From Psychrobacter sp. (GTDB taxonomy: Bacteria; Pseudomonadota; Gammaproteobacteria; Pseudomonadales; Moraxellaceae), in NCBI GenBank assembly GCA_012270355.1, contig JAAXIL010000033.1, positions 1 through 28,727 on the forward strand: a DNA stretch of 28,727 nt, given 5' to 3'. A program made the position numbers and the translations under genes. The notes under the pieces were generated by a model. The model was not told the DNA's origin, made no database searches, and worked only from the letters and a program-made list of their open reading frames with translations. The first letter of the stretch is position 1. Every line of letters starts with the position of its first letter. Shown in pieces: positions 7,264 to 28,727 of this stretch.

Positions 7264-7408
7264 CACCACTTAATAGAGATGGTTTTCTGTCAAAATTAAA
7301 TGGTGCAAATGAACGAATTCCGTCACGCTTGCGGATTAAATTAACTTGAAGTACGACTTGTACATCGGCGTTAATTTGCACCGCAATCGTTCAGGACTTC
7401 GTTCATTT
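7264..7408 (+). ncRNA. Structured nadV leader with a 39-bp-arm hairpin and alternative pairings
   Basis: The nadM-nadV gap is mostly inverted repeats. Arms 7307-7345 and 7370-7408 match at 31 of 39 positions, including AAATGAACGAA, TTGCGG and AAATTAAC with their complements. They enclose a 24-nt loop with GAAGTACGACTTGTAC. An upstream hairpin pairs GCACCACTTAAT (7264-7275) with ATTAAATGGTGC (7295-7306). A third, mutually exclusive pairing joins GGTGCAAAT (7302-7310) with ATTTGCACC (7374-7382). The large hairpin ends 10 nt before the GAGGAG of nadV. This could be a regulatory leader or simply a palindromic mobile repeat. It does not match the NAD-I or NAD-II riboswitch motifs as I know them. 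Confidence 0.5.
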
Positions 7409-7430
7409 CACACAACAGAGGAGTTCTGTG

Positions 7431-8822
7431 ATGTTTACGACCAACTTTACCAACCTAATCTTAAATGCCGACAGCTACAAAACGTCGCACTGGTTGCAAT
7501 ATCCGCCCGACACCGAATATGTGTCCAGCTACGTCGAAGCCCGCAAAGGCGATTATGACGTGGTGTTTTTTGGCTTGCAGGCGTTTATCAAAGACTATTT
7601 GATGACCCCCATCACTGCCAGCGACATTGATGAAGCCGAAACCATGATTACCGCCCACGGCTTACCGTTTTATCGAGCAGGTTGGGAGGCAATGCTAAAC
7701 AAGCACGGCGGTTATTTGCCGATTCGCATTCAAGCCGTGCCTGAAGGGTCGATTGTGCCTGTGTCGAACGTGGTGTGCCAAATCGTCAATACCGACCCTG
7801 AATTTTATTGGCTGCCAAGCTATTTGGAGACGGCGTTGCTACGAGGCATCTGGTATCCCTCAACGGTAGCGAGTGTGTCGCACTATTGCCGAAGCGTGAT
7901 TAAATCTGCCCTAGAAAAATCTGCCGACAGTTTGGAGGGCTTACCGTTTAAACTACATGATTTTGGAGCACGAGGTGTGTCGAGTATGGAAACGGTAGCA
8001 CTCGGTAGTTTGGCTAATTTGGTCAACTTTTCGGGTACAGACAGCATGACCGCCCTCATTGCCGCCGCCCGTTGGTATGGCATGACTGATGAGATGCCAG
8101 CGTTTTCGATTCCTGCTGCTGAGCATAGCACCATGACTGCATGGGGACGAGATCATGAGGAGCAAGCCTTTGCCAACATGCTTGAGCAGTTCGGCGGAGA
8201 GGGTAAACTGGTAGCAGTGGTGTCGGACAGCTATGACTTATGGAACGCTATTGACCACATTTGGGGCGAATCGCTGAAAGCCGACGTAGAAAATATGGGT
8301 GGCACGCTGGTCATTCGCCCCGACAGTGGCGAACCTGCCAAAGTGGTGCGGGAAGCATTGGAACGTTTGGCGGTGAAGTTTGGTACGACGACCAACAGCA
8401 AAGGCTATAAAGTTCTGCCCGATTATGTGCGGTTGATTCAAGGCGATGGCATCAATCCGCAAAGCCTTGGCAAAATTTTGGATGCGGTGATGAACGCAGG
8501 CTTTAGTGCCGATAACGTAACCTTTGGTATGGGTGGTGGACTGCTTCAGCAAGTCAACCGAGACACCATGAGCTGGGCGATGAAAGCCAGTGCCGCAAAA
8601 GTGGACGGCGAGTGGCGAGATGTGTTTAAAGACCCTATCACCAGCCGTTCTAAACGCTCGAAAAAAGGTCGCTTGGCGTTGGTGGAAACAGACGGCAAAT
8701 TCGATACCATCAAAGAAGATGCCTTGAATGGACAAACTAACCTACTGCAAGATGTGTTTGTGGATGGCAAGTTGCTTGTCGATGACACCTTAACAACCAT
8801 TCGAGAGCGGGCGGGTTGGTGA
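7431..8822 (+). CDS. nadV: Nicotinamide phosphoribosyltransferase NadV
   Basis: NadV condenses nicotinamide with PRPP to give NMN, the substrate of the upstream NadM. Recognisable blocks run in order: NADSYKTSHWLQYPP near the N-terminus, HDFGARGVSS, the SIPAAEHSTMTAWG segment carrying the catalytic-type His (about residue 232), VVSDSYDLWNAI, VIRPDSGEP and FGMGGGLLQQVNRDT. At about 463 residues it has the normal length of bacterial NAMPT-like enzymes, and no key block is missing. The start ATG 7431 is set by GAGGAG 7 nt upstream; an adjacent GTG at 7428 is less likely. The gene sits directly behind a large hairpin that could modulate its translation. Nicotinamide salvage through NadV bypasses the deamidating PncA route. 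Confidence 0.95.
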   Translation: MFTTNFTNLILNADSYKTSHWLQYPPDTEYVSSYVEARKGDYDVVFFGLQAFIKDYLMTPITASDIDEAETMITAHGLPFYRAGWEAMLNKHGGYLPIRIQAVPEGSIVPVSNVVCQIVNTDPEFYWLPSYLETALLRGIWYPSTVASVSHYCRSVIKSALEKSADSLEGLPFKLHDFGARGVSSMETVALGSLANLVNFSGTDSMTALIAAARWYGMTDEMPAFSIPAAEHSTMTAWGRDHEEQAFANMLEQFGGEGKLVAVVSDSYDLWNAIDHIWGESLKADVENMGGTLVIRPDSGEPAKVVREALERLAVKFGTTTNSKGYKVLPDYVRLIQGDGINPQSLGKILDAVMNAGFSADNVTFGMGGGLLQQVNRDTMSWAMKASAAKVDGEWRDVFKDPITSRSKRSKKGRLALVETDGKFDTIKEDALNGQTNLLQDVFVDGKLLVDDTLTTIRERAGW

Positions 8823-15576: not shown

Positions 15577-16304
15577 AGCAGGATACGGTACGGTTACCTG
15601 AAGCAGAAGGCGAGCTGGGAGGGTTATTTACGCTTAATCCGTCATCAAAAAAGCCTAACTTATCACTGATGATGGTCGGAGATTCGTCGGCATGTGGTGT
15701 GGGCGTGACGTATCAAGATGACGCACTAATCGGACAGGTGCTTGTTAATTTGCAAACGGATGCGGGTTTGAGTCAACAATTTGCTGGAATTGACTGGCAA
15801 CTGCACGCCACCACAGGGCATACCAGTTTTGATGTGCTAAGACGCTTGTATGTGTTGCCCAAACCGTCTGACCCTATCGATGTAATGGTTATTGTGGTGG
15901 GGGTTAATGATGTGACAATAAGCACACCAATGGACGTTTGGCAAAATAATCTTAGTAAAATTCTAGCTATTGCTCATCGTAAGTTTGGCGTAAAGCATCT
16001 ATTTTTAACTGCCCTGCCACCGATGGCGTTATTTCCTGCTTTGCCTAAGCCATTAAACGCTTTTGTGGGCAAAAAATCGGACGTTTACGATGATGCTTTG
16101 CAAACATTTTGCCAGAACAATGACGTTTATTATGTGTCTGCCGACTTTTTGACGCATGCAGAAAGTTTAAGACAGCCCATTGCCGATGGTTTTGCAAGCG
16201 ATGGCTTTCATCCCAATGCCACAGCTTATGCTCTTTGGGTTAAGCTTTTGGAACACATCATTGCTACCACCTTAAGCCTAGACAATGAGTTGCAAGTTTA
16301 CTGA
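15534..16304 (+). CDS. SGNH/GDSL-family hydrolase
   Basis: A 256-residue SGNH esterase-like protein. The four blocks are visible: MMVGDSSACGVGV with the nucleophile Ser (about 51), a Gly-containing ATTGHTSFDVLRR, VVGVNDV with Asn (about 125), and DGFHPN with Asp and His (about 223 and 226). Members hydrolyse lipid or carbohydrate esters. The N-terminus (MVFAPLYLIQARKLK and LPEAEGELGG) is weakly hydrophobic rather than a clear signal peptide, so the location is uncertain. Its first 43 nt overlap the end of prmC in another frame, which implies translational coupling. The ATG at 15534 has no strong Shine-Dalgarno. It ends 57 nt before the riboswitch, just upstream of the gcv promoter. Confidence 0.85.
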   Translation: MVFAPLYLIQARKLKQDTVRLPEAEGELGGLFTLNPSSKKPNLSLMMVGDSSACGVGVTYQDDALIGQVLVNLQTDAGLSQQFAGIDWQLHATTGHTSFDVLRRLYVLPKPSDPIDVMVIVVGVNDVTISTPMDVWQNNLSKILAIAHRKFGVKHLFLTALPPMALFPALPKPLNAFVGKKSDVYDDALQTFCQNNDVYYVSADFLTHAESLRQPIADGFASDGFHPNATAYALWVKLLEHIIATTLSLDNELQVY

Positions 16305-16314
16305 TAACTTCGAC

Positions 16315-16343
16315 TTGTAAAATTCGTCAGCACCTTTCATAAT
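16315..16343 (+). promoter_or_regulatory. Sigma70-type promoter for the gcv leader
   Basis: TTGTAA (-35, 16315-16320) and CATAAT (-10, 16338-16343) are separated by exactly 17 nt. Transcription would begin near 16350, just before P1 of the first glycine aptamer (16362). Confidence 0.6.
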
Positions 16344-16361
16344 AGTTTTGATTAAATTTAG

Positions 16362-16445
16362 GCATATCAGGAGAGTGGCAGGCACGACTTGCCCACCGAA
16401 GGCGTAAGCACCCCGCCAATCGCTCAGGTCAATGGACTGATATGC
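16362..16445 (+). ncRNA. Glycine riboswitch, aptamer 1
   Basis: P1 is formed by GCATATCA (16362-16369) and TGATATGC (16438-16445). Between them are the class signatures GGAGAG, CACCGAAGG and GCTCAGGTCAATGGAC. The short P3 arm (GGCG with CGCC) is of normal size. Glycine binding to aptamers of this class usually switches gcv expression on. Confidence 0.9.
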
Positions 16446-16482
16446 TTTGTCGTTAACTATAGAATAAGTTAGCCGATACAAA

Positions 16483-16692
16483 AATCTGGAGAGTAGGGCA
16501 GGATAGTTTGCCCACACCGAAGGGGCAAAGCGGTTTATAGACTGCCCATAATAAACGTATCACTTTGTTAGGCTTGCTCGAAGTACGACATCTTCACTCG
16601 CCTGCCTCGTGCTACATTCATTATGGATTGTCTATATATTCTTGGCTAAATATGCAAAGCTAACCGTGAAAATCTCAGGTTTCAGGACAGAT
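16483..16692 (+). ncRNA. Glycine riboswitch, aptamer 2, with expanded P3 arm
   Basis: The 5' half (ATCTGGAGAG, then CACCGAAGGGGCAAAGCGG) and the 3' half (CCGTGAAAATCTCAGG, then AGGACAGATGG) are the expected core sequences, and P1 pairs ATCTG with CAGAT (16688-16692). They are about 135 nt apart, where aptamer 1 has roughly 12. GGTT (16532-16535) and AACC (16662-16665) close the enlarged P3 arm. The extra sequence at 16536-16636 is described separately. Tandem arrangement with aptamer 1 and the terminator at 16693 make the overall assignment firm. Confidence 0.88.
16536..16636 (+). repeat. Palindromic repeat inserted in P3 of glycine aptamer 2
   Basis: The outer arms TATAGAC (16536-16542) and GTCTATA (16630-16636) are perfect complements, as are CCATAAT (16546-16552) and ATTATGG (16620-16626). 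They enclose TTTGTTAGGCTTGCTCGAAG, then TACGACATCTTCACTCGCC and TGCCTCG. Nearly the same core follows gcvP (22286 onward), and its central GAAGTACGAC also lies in the nadV leader hairpin loop. In RNA it would extend P3 as a coaxial stem with an apical domain. Confidence 0.65.
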
Positions 16693-16776
16693 GGGGCAAA
16701 CGCATGAGCAGATGCTATTGAACGGTCAAAAAGTTGAGCGGTCAGTAAGATTTGCTCATGGGTTTGCCCTTTTTTT
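16693..16776 (+). terminator. Riboswitch-controlled intrinsic terminator
   Basis: GGGCAAACGCATGAGCA on the 5' side pairs with TGCTCATGGGTTTGCCC on the 3' side (to 16769) with one mismatch, followed by seven T. The 5' arm starts directly after the 3' strand of aptamer 2 P1. Glycine binding would be expected to favour readthrough into gcvT; that direction is inferred from the family. Confidence 0.85.
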
Positions 16777-16821
16777 ATGTCCATATACTTGATACTTGCC
16801 AAATTAATTTAAGGAATTGTT

Positions 16822-17976
16822 ATGTCCGAAGCCACGCCAAACCGTACCCCCTTTTATCAAGCCCATGTCGATGCCGAAGGAAAAATGGTCGACTTTGCAG
16901 GGTGGGAATTGCCCATTCATTATGGCTCACAGCGTGAAGAGCACGATGCGGTGCGTACCGATGCTGGCATGTTTGATGTGTCGCATATGGTTGTCACCGA
17001 TGTGGCAGGCGAGGACGCAAAAGCTTTTTTACAAAAGCTGATTGCTAATGATGTGGCAAAACTTAAAACTGTCGGTAAGGCATTATACTCGGGTATGTTA
17101 AACGATGAAGGCGGCGTGATTGACGATTTGATTGTGTATCGTATGAACGAGGCGGAAACCGAATATCGCATCGTGTCGAATGCGGCAACTCGTGACAAAG
17201 ATTTGGCACAATTCAACAAGGTTGCCTCTGACTTTGCAGTGACGCTTACCGAACGCCCTGAGCTTGCCATGTTAGCGGTGCAAGGACCCAACGCCATTGC
17301 CAAATTGAGTCAAGCAAAGCCTGCTTGGGCAGAGACGTTAGAAGGCTTAAAGCCGTTTGTTGGGGCAGATTTGACCGACATTGAGGGCAAAGATTGGTTT
17401 GTGGCTCGCACAGGCTACACGGGTGAGAACGGTGTGGAAGTAATTTTGCCTGAAGGAAAAGCCGAAGTGTTTTTTAATGCGCTAAAAGAGGCAGGCATTC
17501 GTCCTTGTGGACTTGGGGCACGTGATACCTTACGCATGGAAGCGGGGATGAACCTGTATGGTAACGACATGGACGATACAGTTAGCCCATATGAGTGCAA
17601 CATGAGTTGGACGCTTGCCCTGAAGTCTAAAGAAGGGCAAGCCGATAGAGATTTTGTCGGACGAGAAGCCTTGGTTAGCAAACGTGAACAAGCCAAAGCC
17701 GATGGCAGTGCATTAAAGCAAGTCGGTCTTGTGCTAGAATCTCGGGGCGTATTGCGTGATGGCATGGCAGTAGTGATAGACGGTCAGCCAGCTGGCATCA
17801 TCACCAGTGGCACGTTTTCACCAACCCTTGAGCATTAGATTGGTATCGCCCGTGTGCCCATGAGCGTGAACGAAGGCGACACCCTGCAAGTCGATTTACG
17901 TGGCAAAGGCAAATTTGTTGATGTGCGGGTGGTAAAATTACCCTTTGTACGCAATGGCAAAAAGCAGTTTGATTAA
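16822..17976 (+). pseudogene. gcvT: Glycine cleavage T-protein (aminomethyltransferase), internal TAG
   Basis: GcvT transfers the methylene group from the aminomethyl-lipoyl H-protein to tetrahydrofolate, releasing ammonia. ATG 16822 follows [27 protein letters not shown], the [12 protein letters not shown] block and [20 protein letters not shown] are intact. Codon 339 (17836-17838) is TAG inside the conserved GTFSPTLE-H-(S)-IGIARVP segment. Relatives usually have serine here, so TCG to TAG is the simplest explanation. The same frame then continues with family sequence ([31 protein letters not shown]) to TAA 17974-17976. The truncated product would lose the last 45 residues of the C-terminal barrel. 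The change is one base, so it is a fresh mutation, a population variant or a sequencing error. Confidence 0.9.
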
Positions 17977-19390: not shown

Positions 19391-22261
19391 ATGACTACTT
19401 TTTCTACTCTTTTTAATGACCATGCTTTTGTCGAACGCCATCTTGGTTCGGGAAAAACAGAACAGGCGGAGATGCTAAAAGCCGTCGGTTATGACGACAT
19501 GGACAGTTTTGTTAATGACACTGTGCCCGAATCGGTACGCATGCATCGGTCGCTTGATTTGCCCGCTGCCATGAGTGAGCATGATGCGTTGGCAAAACTT
19601 AAAGGCATGGCAGACGACATTACCGTCAACAAAAGCTACATTGGGCAAGGCTATTCGCCCGTGCGAATGCCTGCGGTGATTCAGCGAAACGTGCTTGAAA
19701 ACCCGGGTTGGTACACCGCCTACACACCGTATCAAGCGGAGATTTCGCAAGGCCGCCTTGAGGCATTGCTTAATTTTCAACAGGTTTGTATTGATCTCAC
19801 AGGCTTAGAGCTCGCTGGGGCTTCATTGCTCGATGAGGCAACCGCCGCAGCTGAAGGTATGGCGATGGCAAAACGGGTGAGTAAATCGAAGTCTAATCAA
19901 TTTTTTGTCGATGAGCGTACCTATCCGCAAACGTTGGACGTGATTAAAACCCGTGCCGAGTATTTCGGCTGGGAAATCGTGGTTGGTGATTTTGATACCG
20001 CAAAAGAGGGCGACTTCTTTGGGGCGTATTTCCAATACGTGGGCAAAGATGGTGATGTGGTCGATTTAACCGATGTTATAGCCAGCGTTAAAGAAAACAA
20101 AACCTACGCCATCGTCGGAGCGGATATCATGAGTTTGGTACTGCTCAAATCGCCTGCCGACATGGGAGCAGACGTGGCATTAGGCAGTACGCAACGCTTT
20201 GGCATTCCGATGGGCTTTGGCGGCCCGCACGCCGCATATTTTGCCTTTACTGACAAAGCCAAACGCTCTGCCCCCGGTCGCATCATTGGCGTATCCAAAG
20301 ACGCTCAAGGCAACACCGCCCTACGCATGGCACTACAAACCCGTGAGCAACACATTCGCCGTGAAAAAGCCAACTCAAACATTTGCACCTCACAAGTGTT
20401 ACTTGCTAATTTGGCTGGCATGTATGCGGTTTATCATGGACCTGAAGGGGTCAAACGCATCGCTACCCGCATTCATGCGATGGCAACCGCCTTTGCTGAT
20501 GTGATTGGGCAAGAAGGTGGTGAACTAAACGTGGTGCATGACCAATTTTTCGACGCAGTGCTGATAGATTGTGGTTCGGAAAAATTAGCACAGCAGATTT
20601 ACGACAATGACCAAAACGTCGGCTACAACCTGTGGCGAGTGGGTAATGATAAATTGTCAGTCGCATTTAGTGAGGTCAGTGATGCCGACGATTTTGCGGT
20701 GCTGACGCAACTGTTTGTCGGTAAATCACACGAATTTCCAAACGATGTCCGCATCGGACTAAACGATGACGTATTACGCAACGATGAGATTTTAACGCAC
20801 CCTGTGTTTAATTCGCATCACACCGAACATGAGATGTTACGCTATCTCAAGTCGCTTGAAGACAAAGACTTGGCGATGAACCGTAGCATGATTTCGCTCG
20901 GCAGTTGTACCATGAAACTCAATGCCACGAGCGAGATGTTGCCCATCACTTGGAATGAGTTTGCCAATGTGCATCCCTTCGCCCCCCGTGAGCAAGTCGG
21001 TGGCTACATTGCCATGATTGACAGCTTGCAAGACCAGCTTAAAGCCATTACAGGCTTTGATGACATTTCGATGCAACCTAACTCAGGGGCATCGGGTGAG
21101 TACGCTGGCTTGCTTGCTATCCGTCGTTATCACGAGTCACAAGGTCAGCCCAATCGTGACGTGTGCTTGATTCCAAAGTCCGCTCATGGCACGAACCCTG
21201 CGACCGCTCAAATGATGGGCATGCAAGTCGTCGTCGTTGATACCGATGAAGACGGCAATATTGACGTTGCTGACTTAACCGCCAAATGTGAAGAACATAG
21301 CGAGCGACTTGGGGCGTTGATGGTGACGTACCCGTCCACGCACGGCGTGTTTGAAGCTGGTATCCGAGACATTTGCTCGCTGATTCACGAGCATGGCGGG
21401 CAAGTGTATATGGACGGGGCGAACATGAACGCTCAGGTGGGCGTGATGCAACCTGCCGAAGTGGGTGCCGATGTGCTACACATGAACTTGCACAAAACTT
21501 TCTGTATTCCGCACGGTGGCGGTGGTCCGGGCATGGGACCGATTGGCATGAAGTCGCACCTTGCCCCATTTAAGGCAAATCATGCTGTTAGCCCAGTACA
21601 TAATGCCCCAAATGAGTGTTCAGCCGTGTCTGCCGCACCTTATGGTTCTGCCAGCATTTTGCCAATTTCATGGATGTATATCACCATGATGGGACACGAC
21701 GGCTTGCTTGAAGCCACAGAAGTGGCATTGCTCAATGCTAACTATGTCGCCAGCCAACTCAAGGATGATTATCCCGTTTTATACACAGGTAAAAATGGAC
21801 GAGTGGCTCACGAGTGCATCATCGACATTCGTCCGCGCAAGGAAGAAACAGGCAGCACCGAGACTGACATAGCCAAACGCCTGATGGATTACGGTTTCCA
21901 CGCCCCGACGATGAGTTTCCCTGTCGCAGGCACGCTGATGATTGAGCCAACCGAATCCGAGCCAAAGCATGAGCTAGACCGCTTTATTTCAGCACTCAAG
22001 CAAATCAAGCAAGAAGCAATGCAGGTCAAAGACGGCACAGACGGTTGGACGGCGGAAGATAACCCATTGGTCAATGCCCCACATACTGCCAGTGTCGTCA
22101 CGGGCGAGGACTGGTCACACCCGTACAGCCGAGAAACTGCCGTGTTCCCACTCGAGTATGTGCGTCAGCATAAGTTTTGGCCTTCGGTTGGACGGGTTGA
22201 TGATGTGTATGGCGACAAGAATTTGATGTGTAGTTGCCCCAGTATCGAAAACTATATGTAA
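19391..22261 (+). CDS. gcvP: Glycine dehydrogenase (decarboxylating), P-protein
   Basis: The P-protein is the pyridoxal-phosphate enzyme that decarboxylates glycine and hands the aminomethyl group to the lipoyl arm of GcvH. It is a single 956-residue chain, the fused two-domain form of gammaproteobacteria. The PLP lysine is Lys 702 in [20 protein letters not shown]. Other conserved pieces are FVERHLG near the N-terminus, [35 protein letters not shown] and [19 protein letters not shown]. The start ATG 19391 has only a weak GAG upstream. It is cut off from gcvTH by a terminator and so may lie outside glycine-riboswitch control. A palindromic repeat begins in its stop codon. Confidence 0.97.
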
Positions 22262-22363
22262 TGCCAATCCAAAAACCAATCTATCTTTGTTAGGCTCACT
22301 TGAAGTACCATTTGTACGTCTTCGTTCGCCTGCCTCGATAGATTGTTTTTTGCAAATGGCATT
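22260..22363. repeat. Palindromic repeat after gcvP (same core as in the riboswitch)
   Basis: Outer arms AATGCCA (22260-22266) and TGGCATT (22357-22363) and inner arms AATCTATC (22278-22285) and GATAGATT (22337-22344) are perfect complements. The loop region contains GTTAGGCTCACTTGAAGTAC then CATTTGTACGTCTTC and GTTCGCCTGCCTCG, in which AGGC/GCCT and GAAGTAC/GTAC..CTTC can pair. It forms a long nested hairpin at the end of gcvP and may protect or end its mRNA. Confidence 0.7.
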
Positions 22364-22432
22364 TATTTTGTATCTTTTGAGCCTCTACGGTGTTAGTTTC
22401 GTTTGCTGTGCGATTTGTGTTTTCTGCACTCG

Positions 22433-22453
22433 TTTGCCTCGTGATGAGGCAAA
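22433..22453. repeat. Short perfect stem-loop
   Basis: TTTGCCTC and GAGGCAAA flank a 5-nt loop. No T-run follows on either strand. Apart from this hairpin and the GNAT remnant, the 22364-22625 stretch shows nothing else. Confidence 0.4.
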
Positions 22454-22483
22454 ATACTTGACCAAATTTTGAAATGATTTTGA

Positions 22484-27871: not shown

Positions 27872-28609
27872 ATGACCTATTGCGTCGGTATCAAACTTAA
27901 AGACGGTATGATTTTCGCCAGCGACACCCGTACCAATGCAGGCGTGGACAACATTTCAACCTTTCGCAAAATGTACCAATTTGGCGTGGAAGGCGAGCGG
28001 TTTTTGGTGCTACTCACCGCAGGCAATCTTGCTACCTCACAGGCGGTATTTAGCAAACTCAACATAGCCATCGATCAAGGGCAAGAACGCAATTTGCATA
28101 ACATGCCGACGGTGTTTGACTGTGCTCAATTGATCGGCGAAAGTGTGCGAGATACGGTTACCCATGCCCAAAATGTGGCTCAAAATAACAACACCAATTT
28201 TACCAGTTCATTTATTTTGGGCGGACAGATTAAAGACCAACCGCCCGAGATTTTTATGATTTATCCCGAAGGCAATTGTGTTCGCACCACCGATGATACC
28301 TCGTTCTTTCAGCTGGGCGAAAGCAAATATGGCAAGCCAATTCTTGACCGCTCTTTGTCATATGAATCCAGCTTACAAGAAGCCTTGCGGGCAACGTTGA
28401 TTTCGTTTGATTCCACCATTCGCTCAAACCTGTCGGTGGGCATGCCGATTGATTTGCTGGTCTATAAAAATGACAGTCTCGCCATGCCCAATGGCAAACG
28501 CATTGATGAAAATGATCCGTACTTTGCGAGCTTGCGTCAACAGTGGGCAGAGGGGCTTAAAGAAATTTTGCATGGGTTTGAAGCCTCGCCCGAGAGTTAT
28601 TGGGAGTAG
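27872..28609 (+). CDS. Anbu-type proteasome-like peptidase
   Basis: A 245-residue Ntn-hydrolase related to HslV and the proteasome beta subunit, of the Anbu group. The predicted catalytic Thr is residue 2, exposed by loss of Met (MTYCVGIKLKDGMIFASDTR). GVDNISTFRKMYQF and FLVLLTAGNLATSQAVF follow as in relatives. The C-terminal part (SFQLGESKYGKPILDR-like, SVGMPIDLLVYKND) completes the fold. I chose ATG 27872 because GGAGAA lies 7 nt upstream; the longer frame from 27797 would bury the Thr. It follows the transglutaminase gene after 118 nt holding a weak AAAACGC/GCGGTTTT hairpin. Anbu particles are assembled from single subunits without an ATPase partner in known cases. Its substrate is unknown; the upstream ligase product is a candidate. 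Confidence 0.93.
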   Translation: MTYCVGIKLKDGMIFASDTRTNAGVDNISTFRKMYQFGVEGERFLVLLTAGNLATSQAVFSKLNIAIDQGQERNLHNMPTVFDCAQLIGESVRDTVTHAQNVAQNNNTNFTSSFILGGQIKDQPPEIFMIYPEGNCVRTTDDTSFFQLGESKYGKPILDRSLSYESSLQEALRATLISFDSTIRSNLSVGMPIDLLVYKNDSLAMPNGKRIDENDPYFASLRQQWAEGLKEILHGFEASPESYWE

Positions 28610-28618
28610 CTCATTAAT

Positions 28619-28684
28619 TGATGATTATTCAATAGATTCTATACCTCGAAACTGCGTGGTATTGCTAGATTTGAATAATCATCA
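28619..28684. repeat. Inverted repeat after the Anbu gene
   Basis: TGATGATTATTCAA (28619-28632) and TTGAATAATCATCA (28671-28684) are perfect 14-bp complements, with an inner ATACC/GGTAT pair. No T-run follows. It may be a bidirectional transcription end or a small palindromic repeat. The remaining bases to 28727 show nothing recognisable. Confidence 0.55.
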
Positions 28685-28727
28685 TGTAATTAGCGCCGAC
28701 CAATAACTCTCTGGCGAGCCTTCAAAC

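What the first reader, a model, noticed from the sequence alone, without database searches (positions are those of the whole stretch)
16483..16692. Glycine aptamer 2 interrupted in P3 by a dispersed palindromic repeat
Aptamer 1 is 84 nt, while aptamer 2 spans about 210 nt because 16536-16636 sits in the P3 arm. All binding-core segments (GGAGAG, CACCGAAGG, CTCAGG, GGACAG) and P1 remain, and the inserted arms are self-complementary, so the extra RNA could fold as an autonomous domain on P3 without destroying the core. The insert's core is shared with a repeat after gcvP. A structured mobile repeat tolerated within a riboswitch aptamer would be a natural example of RNA domain insertion and could change switching.
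Basis: partly seen in the sequence, partly recalled or inferred. Interest (0 to 1): 0.8.

Follow-up and report, generated by a model that had tools for sequence, protein, structure and literature searches.

The report
Mobile hairpin inside glycine riboswitch arm
In a Psychrobacter-like bacterium, a small non-coding jumping DNA element that can fold into a hairpin sits inside one arm of a glycine-sensing RNA switch whose binding core is unchanged, and another species of the genus carries a different such element in the same arm, so this arm looks like a tolerated landing site for mobile DNA.

Summary
Confirmed and extended. The gcvT leader holds a tandem glycine riboswitch (RF00504: 72.7 and 36.2 bits). 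P3 of aptamer 2 contains a 101-nt hairpin, 16536-16636, of a dispersed family: 36 matches at E<=3.3e-6 in this draft genome, and a match in 93 of 105 genus genomes (own included). The family behaves as an IS630-type MITE: at another locus, genomes with and without a copy show insertion at TA with TA doubled, and family ends resemble those of IS630-family elements in the genus. The P3 arm of aptamer 2 is ancestrally variable (35-119 nt in 102 other leaders). One other species (G035) has a different MITE in the same arm. The binding-core segments are at genus consensus and a terminator follows. Best reading: a tolerated peripheral insertion on P3b, its effect on switching unknown. Cautions: predicted folds show the insert competing with P2 and P3b; covariation among copies need not mean RNA selection, since one copy shows one arm rewritten to match the other; gcvT has an in-frame stop 45 codons early; no close relative shows the empty site of this very insertion.

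The parts
16358..16449 (+). glycine riboswitch aptamer 1
   Evidence: RF00504, 72.7 bits
16476..16700 (+). glycine riboswitch aptamer 2, P3 arm enlarged by the insert
   Evidence: RF00504, 36.2 bits; core segments at genus consensus
16536..16636 (+). IS630-type MITE copy in P3b, with the outer TA on each side (TATAGAC...GTCTATA)
   Evidence: Covariance model of the family, 103.4 bits end to end (this copy is one of the nine in the model); 80% DNA identity to another copy
16693..16777 (+). intrinsic terminator of the leader (stem to 16770, then a run of U)
   Evidence: Fold of 16684-16785: -54.9 kcal/mol, z -10.3. The simple terminator scan, which allows loops of 3-8 only, lists none in 16200-16900
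16822..17838 (+). gcvT reading frame, ending at an in-frame TAG where two relatives read on
22259..22364 (+). another copy of the MITE family, after gcvP
   Evidence: 95.1 bits (in the model)
7308..7407 (+). diverged copy of the family upstream of the ORF at 7428-8822
   Evidence: 42.3 bits, E 3.3e-6, not in the model

Best explanation
An IS630-type miniature inverted-repeat element (about 103-107 bp with its TA duplication, no transposase of its own, presumably moved in trans by an IS630-family transposase) inserted at a TA in the distal P3b arm of aptamer 2. In the RNA it can refold as its own hairpin beside the native rest of P3b, so P2, P3a and the glycine pocket can still form and the riboswitch most likely still works. 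The arm tolerates this because in this genus the P3 arm of aptamer 2 is a free periphery. Shown: the insert, its family and spread, TA duplication at another locus, the variable arm, the intact core segments, the terminator. Inferred: transposition at this very site, the mobilising transposase, refolding in the cell, retained switching.
For: Family membership; 93 of 105 genus genomes with a match at E<=0.001, own included, at most 37 candidates scored per genome. Empty against filled site elsewhere: eight genomes filled, G028 and G016 empty, one TA in the empty sites and TA on both sides in the filled ones apart from point changes. Family ends match IS630-family ends beyond TATAG at up to 19 of 25 positions, p 0.0002. 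Arms of 35-119 nt in 102 other leaders (101, G105); without the element the window's arm is 49-51 nt. A different TA-bounded MITE in the same arm of G035. Window departs from genus consensus at 8 of 60 columns around the aptamer 2 core, none in GGAGAG, CCGAAGG, GAAAATCTCAGG or AGGACAGAT. The structure with P1, P2, P3b and the insert hairpin lies 2.0 kcal/mol above the MFE. A 73-nt P3 loop is present in aptamer 2 of the glycine-responsive gonococcal gcvT riboswitch (PMC13104608).
Against: Predicted P2 and P3b pairing falls with the insert (0.97 to 0.64 and 0.96 to 0.50 with the terminator). The model does not favour canonical P1 of aptamer 2 in any case (0.27 with insert, 0.09 without; 0 in both once the terminator is included). 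The window copy's own ends match the IS ends only weakly (11-14 of 25, p 0.006-0.075, uncorrected). No orthologous empty site. gcvT carries an in-frame stop.
Confidence: 0.68

Rival explanations
1. The insertion damages aptamer 2 and the leader is decaying: gcvT is interrupted by a stop, selection on the switch is weak, and the MITE is tolerated junk.
For: In-frame TAG at codon 339 of gcvT where two relatives examined read on; predicted P2 and P3b pairing reduced; aptamer 2 scores 36.2 bits, close to the cut-off.
Against: The 45 codons after the stop remain open and resemble the GcvT C-terminus, so the lesion is recent or a read error; the core segments and a strong terminator are intact; aptamer 2 of other genus genomes also scores low, mostly 38-46 bits in the rows listed.
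Confidence: 0.18
2. Co-option: the insert changes the switch and is kept for that, for instance by pairing 16543-16549 (UGCCCAU) with 16691-16698 (AUGGGGCA), the G-tract at the foot of the terminator.
For: Seven pairs with one bulged G can be drawn from the sequence (my reading, not tested). A pseudoknot of a C-tract in P3b with a G-tract after aptamer 2 is reported for 66% of the gcvT-type riboswitches of one study (cited in PMC13104608). Two species hold MITEs in this arm.
Against: The TGCCCA stretch also occurs in other copies of the family outside any riboswitch, so it came with the element; no statistical test was made; G035's insert is of another family.
Confidence: 0.1
3. Ancestral long arm: the P3 arm is simply a native variable arm, not an insertion.
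For: P3 arms of aptamer 2 are variable in the genus and long in Neisseria gonorrhoeae.
Against: The arm contains an end-to-end copy of a dispersed family.
Confidence: 0.02
4. Assembly chimera at a repeat in a draft genome.
For: 258 contigs, 83% complete; a repeat is involved.
Against: Both flanks are the two halves of one aptamer at genus consensus; the longest exact run shared with any of ten other copies is 20 nt.
Confidence: 0.02

Closest known systems
Tandem glycine riboswitch of Neisseria gonorrhoeae gcvT (PMC13104608; passages, section 7 part 1 of 2)
   Same: Tandem aptamers before gcvT; aptamer 2 with a large P3 loop (73 nt) variable between species; still glycine-responsive
   Different: Translational switch without a predicted terminator; no mobile element reported in the parts I saw
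BOX element between two T-box riboswitches of the pneumococcal trp operon (PMC3049150; passages)
   Same: A structured dispersed repeat co-transcribed with riboswitches that seem still to work
   Different: It lies between two riboswitches, not inside an aptamer arm; different repeat family and riboswitch
Correia elements of Neisseria (review PMC10969869; passages)
   Same: Many-copy MITE near genes; TATAG-type ends and TA target are recalled, from no call
   Different: Different genus; end sequences not compared here; known effects are promoters, IHF sites and RNase III cleavage, not riboswitch arms
MITEAba12 of Acinetobacter (PMC6382973; passages)
   Same: A MITE of similar size (111-114 bp) in the same bacterial family
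   Different: 9-bp duplications, mobilised by ISAba12; the related ISs in the passage have GGCTTTGTTGCACAAA-like ends

Membership tests
Glycine riboswitch (RF00504) | Covariance-model score at or above the gathering cut-off for both aptamers | tested here: met
   72.7 and 36.2 bits against 32
Glycine riboswitch (RF00504) | Conserved core segments | tested here: met
   No departure from genus consensus in GGAGAG, CCGAAGG, GAAAATCTCAGG, AGGACAGAT of aptamer 2 over 104 leaders
Glycine riboswitch (RF00504) | Binds glycine and controls the gene | not testable with these tools
   needs probing and reporter assays
IS630-type MITE | Many dispersed short copies with inverted ends | tested here: met
   36 matches at E<=3.3e-6 in the own genome; terminal stem in 8 of the 9 aligned copies paired mostly or wholly
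IS630-type MITE | TA target duplicated on insertion (family) | tested here: met
   G028 and G016 empty against eight filled genomes at one locus
IS630-type MITE | TA target duplicated at the riboswitch insertion itself | tested here: inconclusive
   TA on both sides, but a further TA follows at 16637-16638 and no orthologous empty site was found among 105 genomes
IS630-type MITE | Ends shared with an autonomous IS630-family element | tested here: inconclusive
   Met for other family copies (up to 19 of 25, p 0.0002); window copy 11-14 of 25, p 0.006-0.075; IS frames with DDE_3; no such element shown to be active, and the own genome's DDE_3 frame has a stop
IS630-type MITE | Moved by an IS630-family transposase | not testable with these tools
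   needs a transposition assay
Correia element | Sequence of the Correia terminal repeats | not tested
   resemblance recalled only
MITEAba12 | ISAba12-like ends and 9-bp duplication | tested here: not met
   Ends TATAG..., TA duplication

The most novel reading that the evidence does not exclude
The distal P3 arm of aptamer 2 is a recurrent landing pad where TA-targeting MITEs insert and are kept because they retune the switch. Here the insert would supply a C-rich strand (16543-16549) that pairs with the G-tract at the foot of the terminator (16691-16698), recreating the P3b to G-tract pseudoknot reported for many gcvT glycine riboswitches: a natural case of a transposon adding a regulatory domain to a riboswitch.
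Probability: 0.1. Interest if true: 0.82.

Novelty: new variant of a known kind. Interest (0 to 1): 0.57.

Why it matters
Engineers graft RNA modules onto riboswitch arms; this looks like nature doing so with a mobile element, and another species holds a different element in the same arm. It gives a natural series of arms (35 to 208 nt) for asking how much peripheral RNA an aptamer tolerates and how riboswitch peripheries grow. In the papers searched (an open-access library only) I met a repeat between two riboswitches but none inside an aptamer. It also brings up a large MITE family for which those searches gave no description, and a warning that covariation in such palindromes can come from copying between arms.

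Tried and rejected
Rejected: 'G105 has a third such insertion' - its TATAG...CTATA arm (104 nt) has no good copy elsewhere in its genome (best other match E 0.08); an old, single or decayed insertion is not excluded. Not taken as insertions: TATAG...CTATA in the aptamer 1 P2 arms of G002, G119 and G100, which look like the native P2 stem; not tested further. Rejected: 'the insert is MITEAba12'. Rejected as proof of RNA function: the strong covariation, after the G094 arm change. Without a result: an ON or OFF assignment; the energy model gives canonical P1 of aptamer 2 a probability of 0 once the terminator is included, with or without insert, and a non-canonical helix (16482-16492 with 16673-16682) competes, so it cannot speak to glycine-bound states. 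No close relative for the empty site among 105 genus genomes (best gcvT DNA identities about 70-76% in the 25 best alignments). The promoter scan gave 3 sites where shuffles average 1.4; no promoter is claimed. PMC6944388 (passages), PMC5771137 and PMC9208149 had nothing to the point in the passages shown.

Full report
What is there. The window lies in a draft genome (G000, 1.95 Mb, 258 contigs, 83% complete). Before gcvT (16822), gcvH (18014) and gcvP (19391; gene names are my reading of the ORFs) is a tandem glycine riboswitch: aptamer 1 at 16358-16449 (72.7 bits) and aptamer 2 at 16476-16700 (36.2 bits, cut-off 32), the latter with 135 nt of P3 outside the model alignment. An intrinsic terminator follows (16684-16785 folds at -54.9 kcal/mol, z -10.3; the simple pattern scan, limited to loops of 3-8, lists none).

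The insert belongs to a dispersed family. DNA search of the own genome with 16530-16645 gave 15 matches at E<=10, ten below E 0.02 including itself. Nine copies were aligned as a hairpin (two further copies, L005 and L007, were left out of this alignment because their outer arms pair poorly), and a covariance model from them found 41 matches at E<=1, 36 at E<=3.3e-6. The window holds 16536-16636, 22259-22364, 7308-7407 and a weak 22362-22466. Of 30 copies looked at with a crude ORF caller, 25 lay outside ORFs, 4 overlapped one and 1 could not be placed. In the genus 93 of 105 genomes, own included, have a match at E<=0.001, with at most 37 candidates scored per genome; in the family 107 of 299 genomes, in 4 of 16 genera, at E<=1e-4 with at most 13 scored. 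No Rfam family reached its cut-off on the copies in the window or in the nine loci tried.

It behaves as an IS630-type MITE. A 907-base stretch around one G094 copy was searched in 27 genus genomes and 23 of the loci were compared at the site. Eight carry the copy. G028 reads AACCCA-TA-CGGCTTAC and G016 AACTCA-TA-TAGCTTAC, where the filled ones read AACCCA-TA-TAGTCGA...-TA-TGACTTAC apart from point differences (the first TA reads CA in G094 and G009; the last reads TG in G003). The other 13 I did not score: one (G091) keeps only the 3' part of the element and the rest are too different around the site. IS630-family elements in G108 and G025 (about 910-920 bases, a DDE_3 frame and another frame ahead of it) begin and end with TATAGTCA. 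Beyond TATAG, family ends match theirs at up to 19 of 25 positions (p 0.0002 by permutation); the window copy's ends only at 11-14 of 25 (p 0.006-0.075, uncorrected). That such a transposase moves the element is inferred.

The arm it entered is a variable periphery. Leaders of 103 genomes were parsed and G105; G020 gave no riboswitch match. In 9 of the 103 only one aptamer was parsed, which I take to be aptamer 2. Where parsed, aptamer 1 has a P3 arm of 20-21 nt and a P2 arm of 20-82 nt. The P3 arm of aptamer 2 is 150 nt in the window and 208 in G035; 101 others range from 35 to 119, median 70, and G105 has 104. Without the element the window's arm is 49-51 nt, inside that range. G035 has a different element there, TATAGTCAGG...CAACTATA, with TA on both sides, leaving a 60-nt arm; its sequence has 52 matches in that genome, some of them pieces or both strands of one place. 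It is not a match of the window's family, and its left end matches an IS630 end at 21 of 25 positions. So the same arm holds two different MITEs in two species. In 100 of the 103 other leader loci the window's family gave two matches, both upstream of the aptamers.

Effect on the switch. At 60 columns around the aptamer 2 core the window departs from genus consensus at 8, none in the binding segments. Alone the insert folds at -27.9 kcal/mol, z -3.7, with 1 of 200 shuffles as good. In aptamer 2 the structure with P1, P2, P3b and the insert hairpin lies 2.0 kcal/mol above the MFE, which is a different fold. The insert's pairs have mean probability 0.92 alone, 0.50 in aptamer 2 or the tandem, 0.91 in aptamer 2 with the terminator. 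Against the joined arm, P2 falls from 0.97 to 0.64 and P3b from 0.96 to 0.50 with the terminator, from 0.95 to 0.59 and 0.95 to 0.31 without. Of 60 shuffled inserts, 0 and 1 (without) reach the native value for P3b, but 18 and 14 do for P2; ten other family copies in its place average 0.49 (P2) and 0.31 (P3b) with the terminator. So self-complementarity helps P3b, but the insert is not an insulated domain in this model, which knows neither glycine nor tertiary contacts and does not favour canonical P1 with or without insert. A precedent for tolerance is the gonococcal gcvT riboswitch, whose aptamer 2 has a 73-nt P3 loop and still answers to glycine (PMC13104608).

Covariation, read with care. 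Among the nine copies 20 of 32 pairs show a change on both sides (0 of 500 shuffles reach this; slid controls at most 6). But in G094 the 3' arm differs from the orthologue in G009 at five positions within nine nt, and now matches its own 5' arm at 21 of 22 positions, against 15-16 of 22 in seven orthologues. The simplest reading is copying of one arm from the other by template switching, which yields covariation without RNA function. Unexplained: the hairpin core is better conserved than the ends.

Limits. No empty site at this locus. The gcvT frame has an in-frame TAG at codon 339, where two relatives examined read on; 45 further codons stay open and resemble the GcvT C-terminus. This is a recent lesion or a read error, and leaves open weaker selection on the leader. 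Literature statements rest on eight searches of an open-access library; the nearest case met is a BOX element between two T-box riboswitches (PMC3049150, passages).

Noticed in passing
window 17836-17838: gcvT frame ends at an in-frame TAG at codon 339; the next 45 codons stay open and resemble the GcvT C-terminus of two Psychrobacter relatives. Lesion or sequencing error.
   Followed up: partly
leaders of 104 genus genomes: Mirror-image freedom of the two aptamers: aptamer 1 keeps P3 at 20-21 nt and varies P2 (20-82 nt where parsed), aptamer 2 keeps P2 mostly at 27 nt and varies P3.
   Followed up: partly
L288 (G094) against L289-L295: One MITE copy whose 3' arm carries five clustered changes that all match its own 5' arm, unlike seven orthologues: apparent template-switch correction caught in the act.
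   Followed up: partly
L273:1306-1481: A second dispersed repeat of about 175 nt, with many near-identical copies in Psychrobacter genomes, lies just beside the MITE copy there.
   Followed up: no
window 7308-7407: A diverged copy of the family directly upstream of the ORF at 7428-8822 (looks like a nicotinamide phosphoribosyltransferase, my reading), possibly in its leader.
   Followed up: no
window 28576-28632 and 28671-28727: 57-nt inverted repeat, 84% complementary, at the very end of the contig: palindrome or assembly artefact.
   Followed up: no
L157:182-410 (G105): Aptamer 2 of this genome has both P2 and P3 arms enlarged; neither has a good copy elsewhere in its genome.
   Followed up: partly
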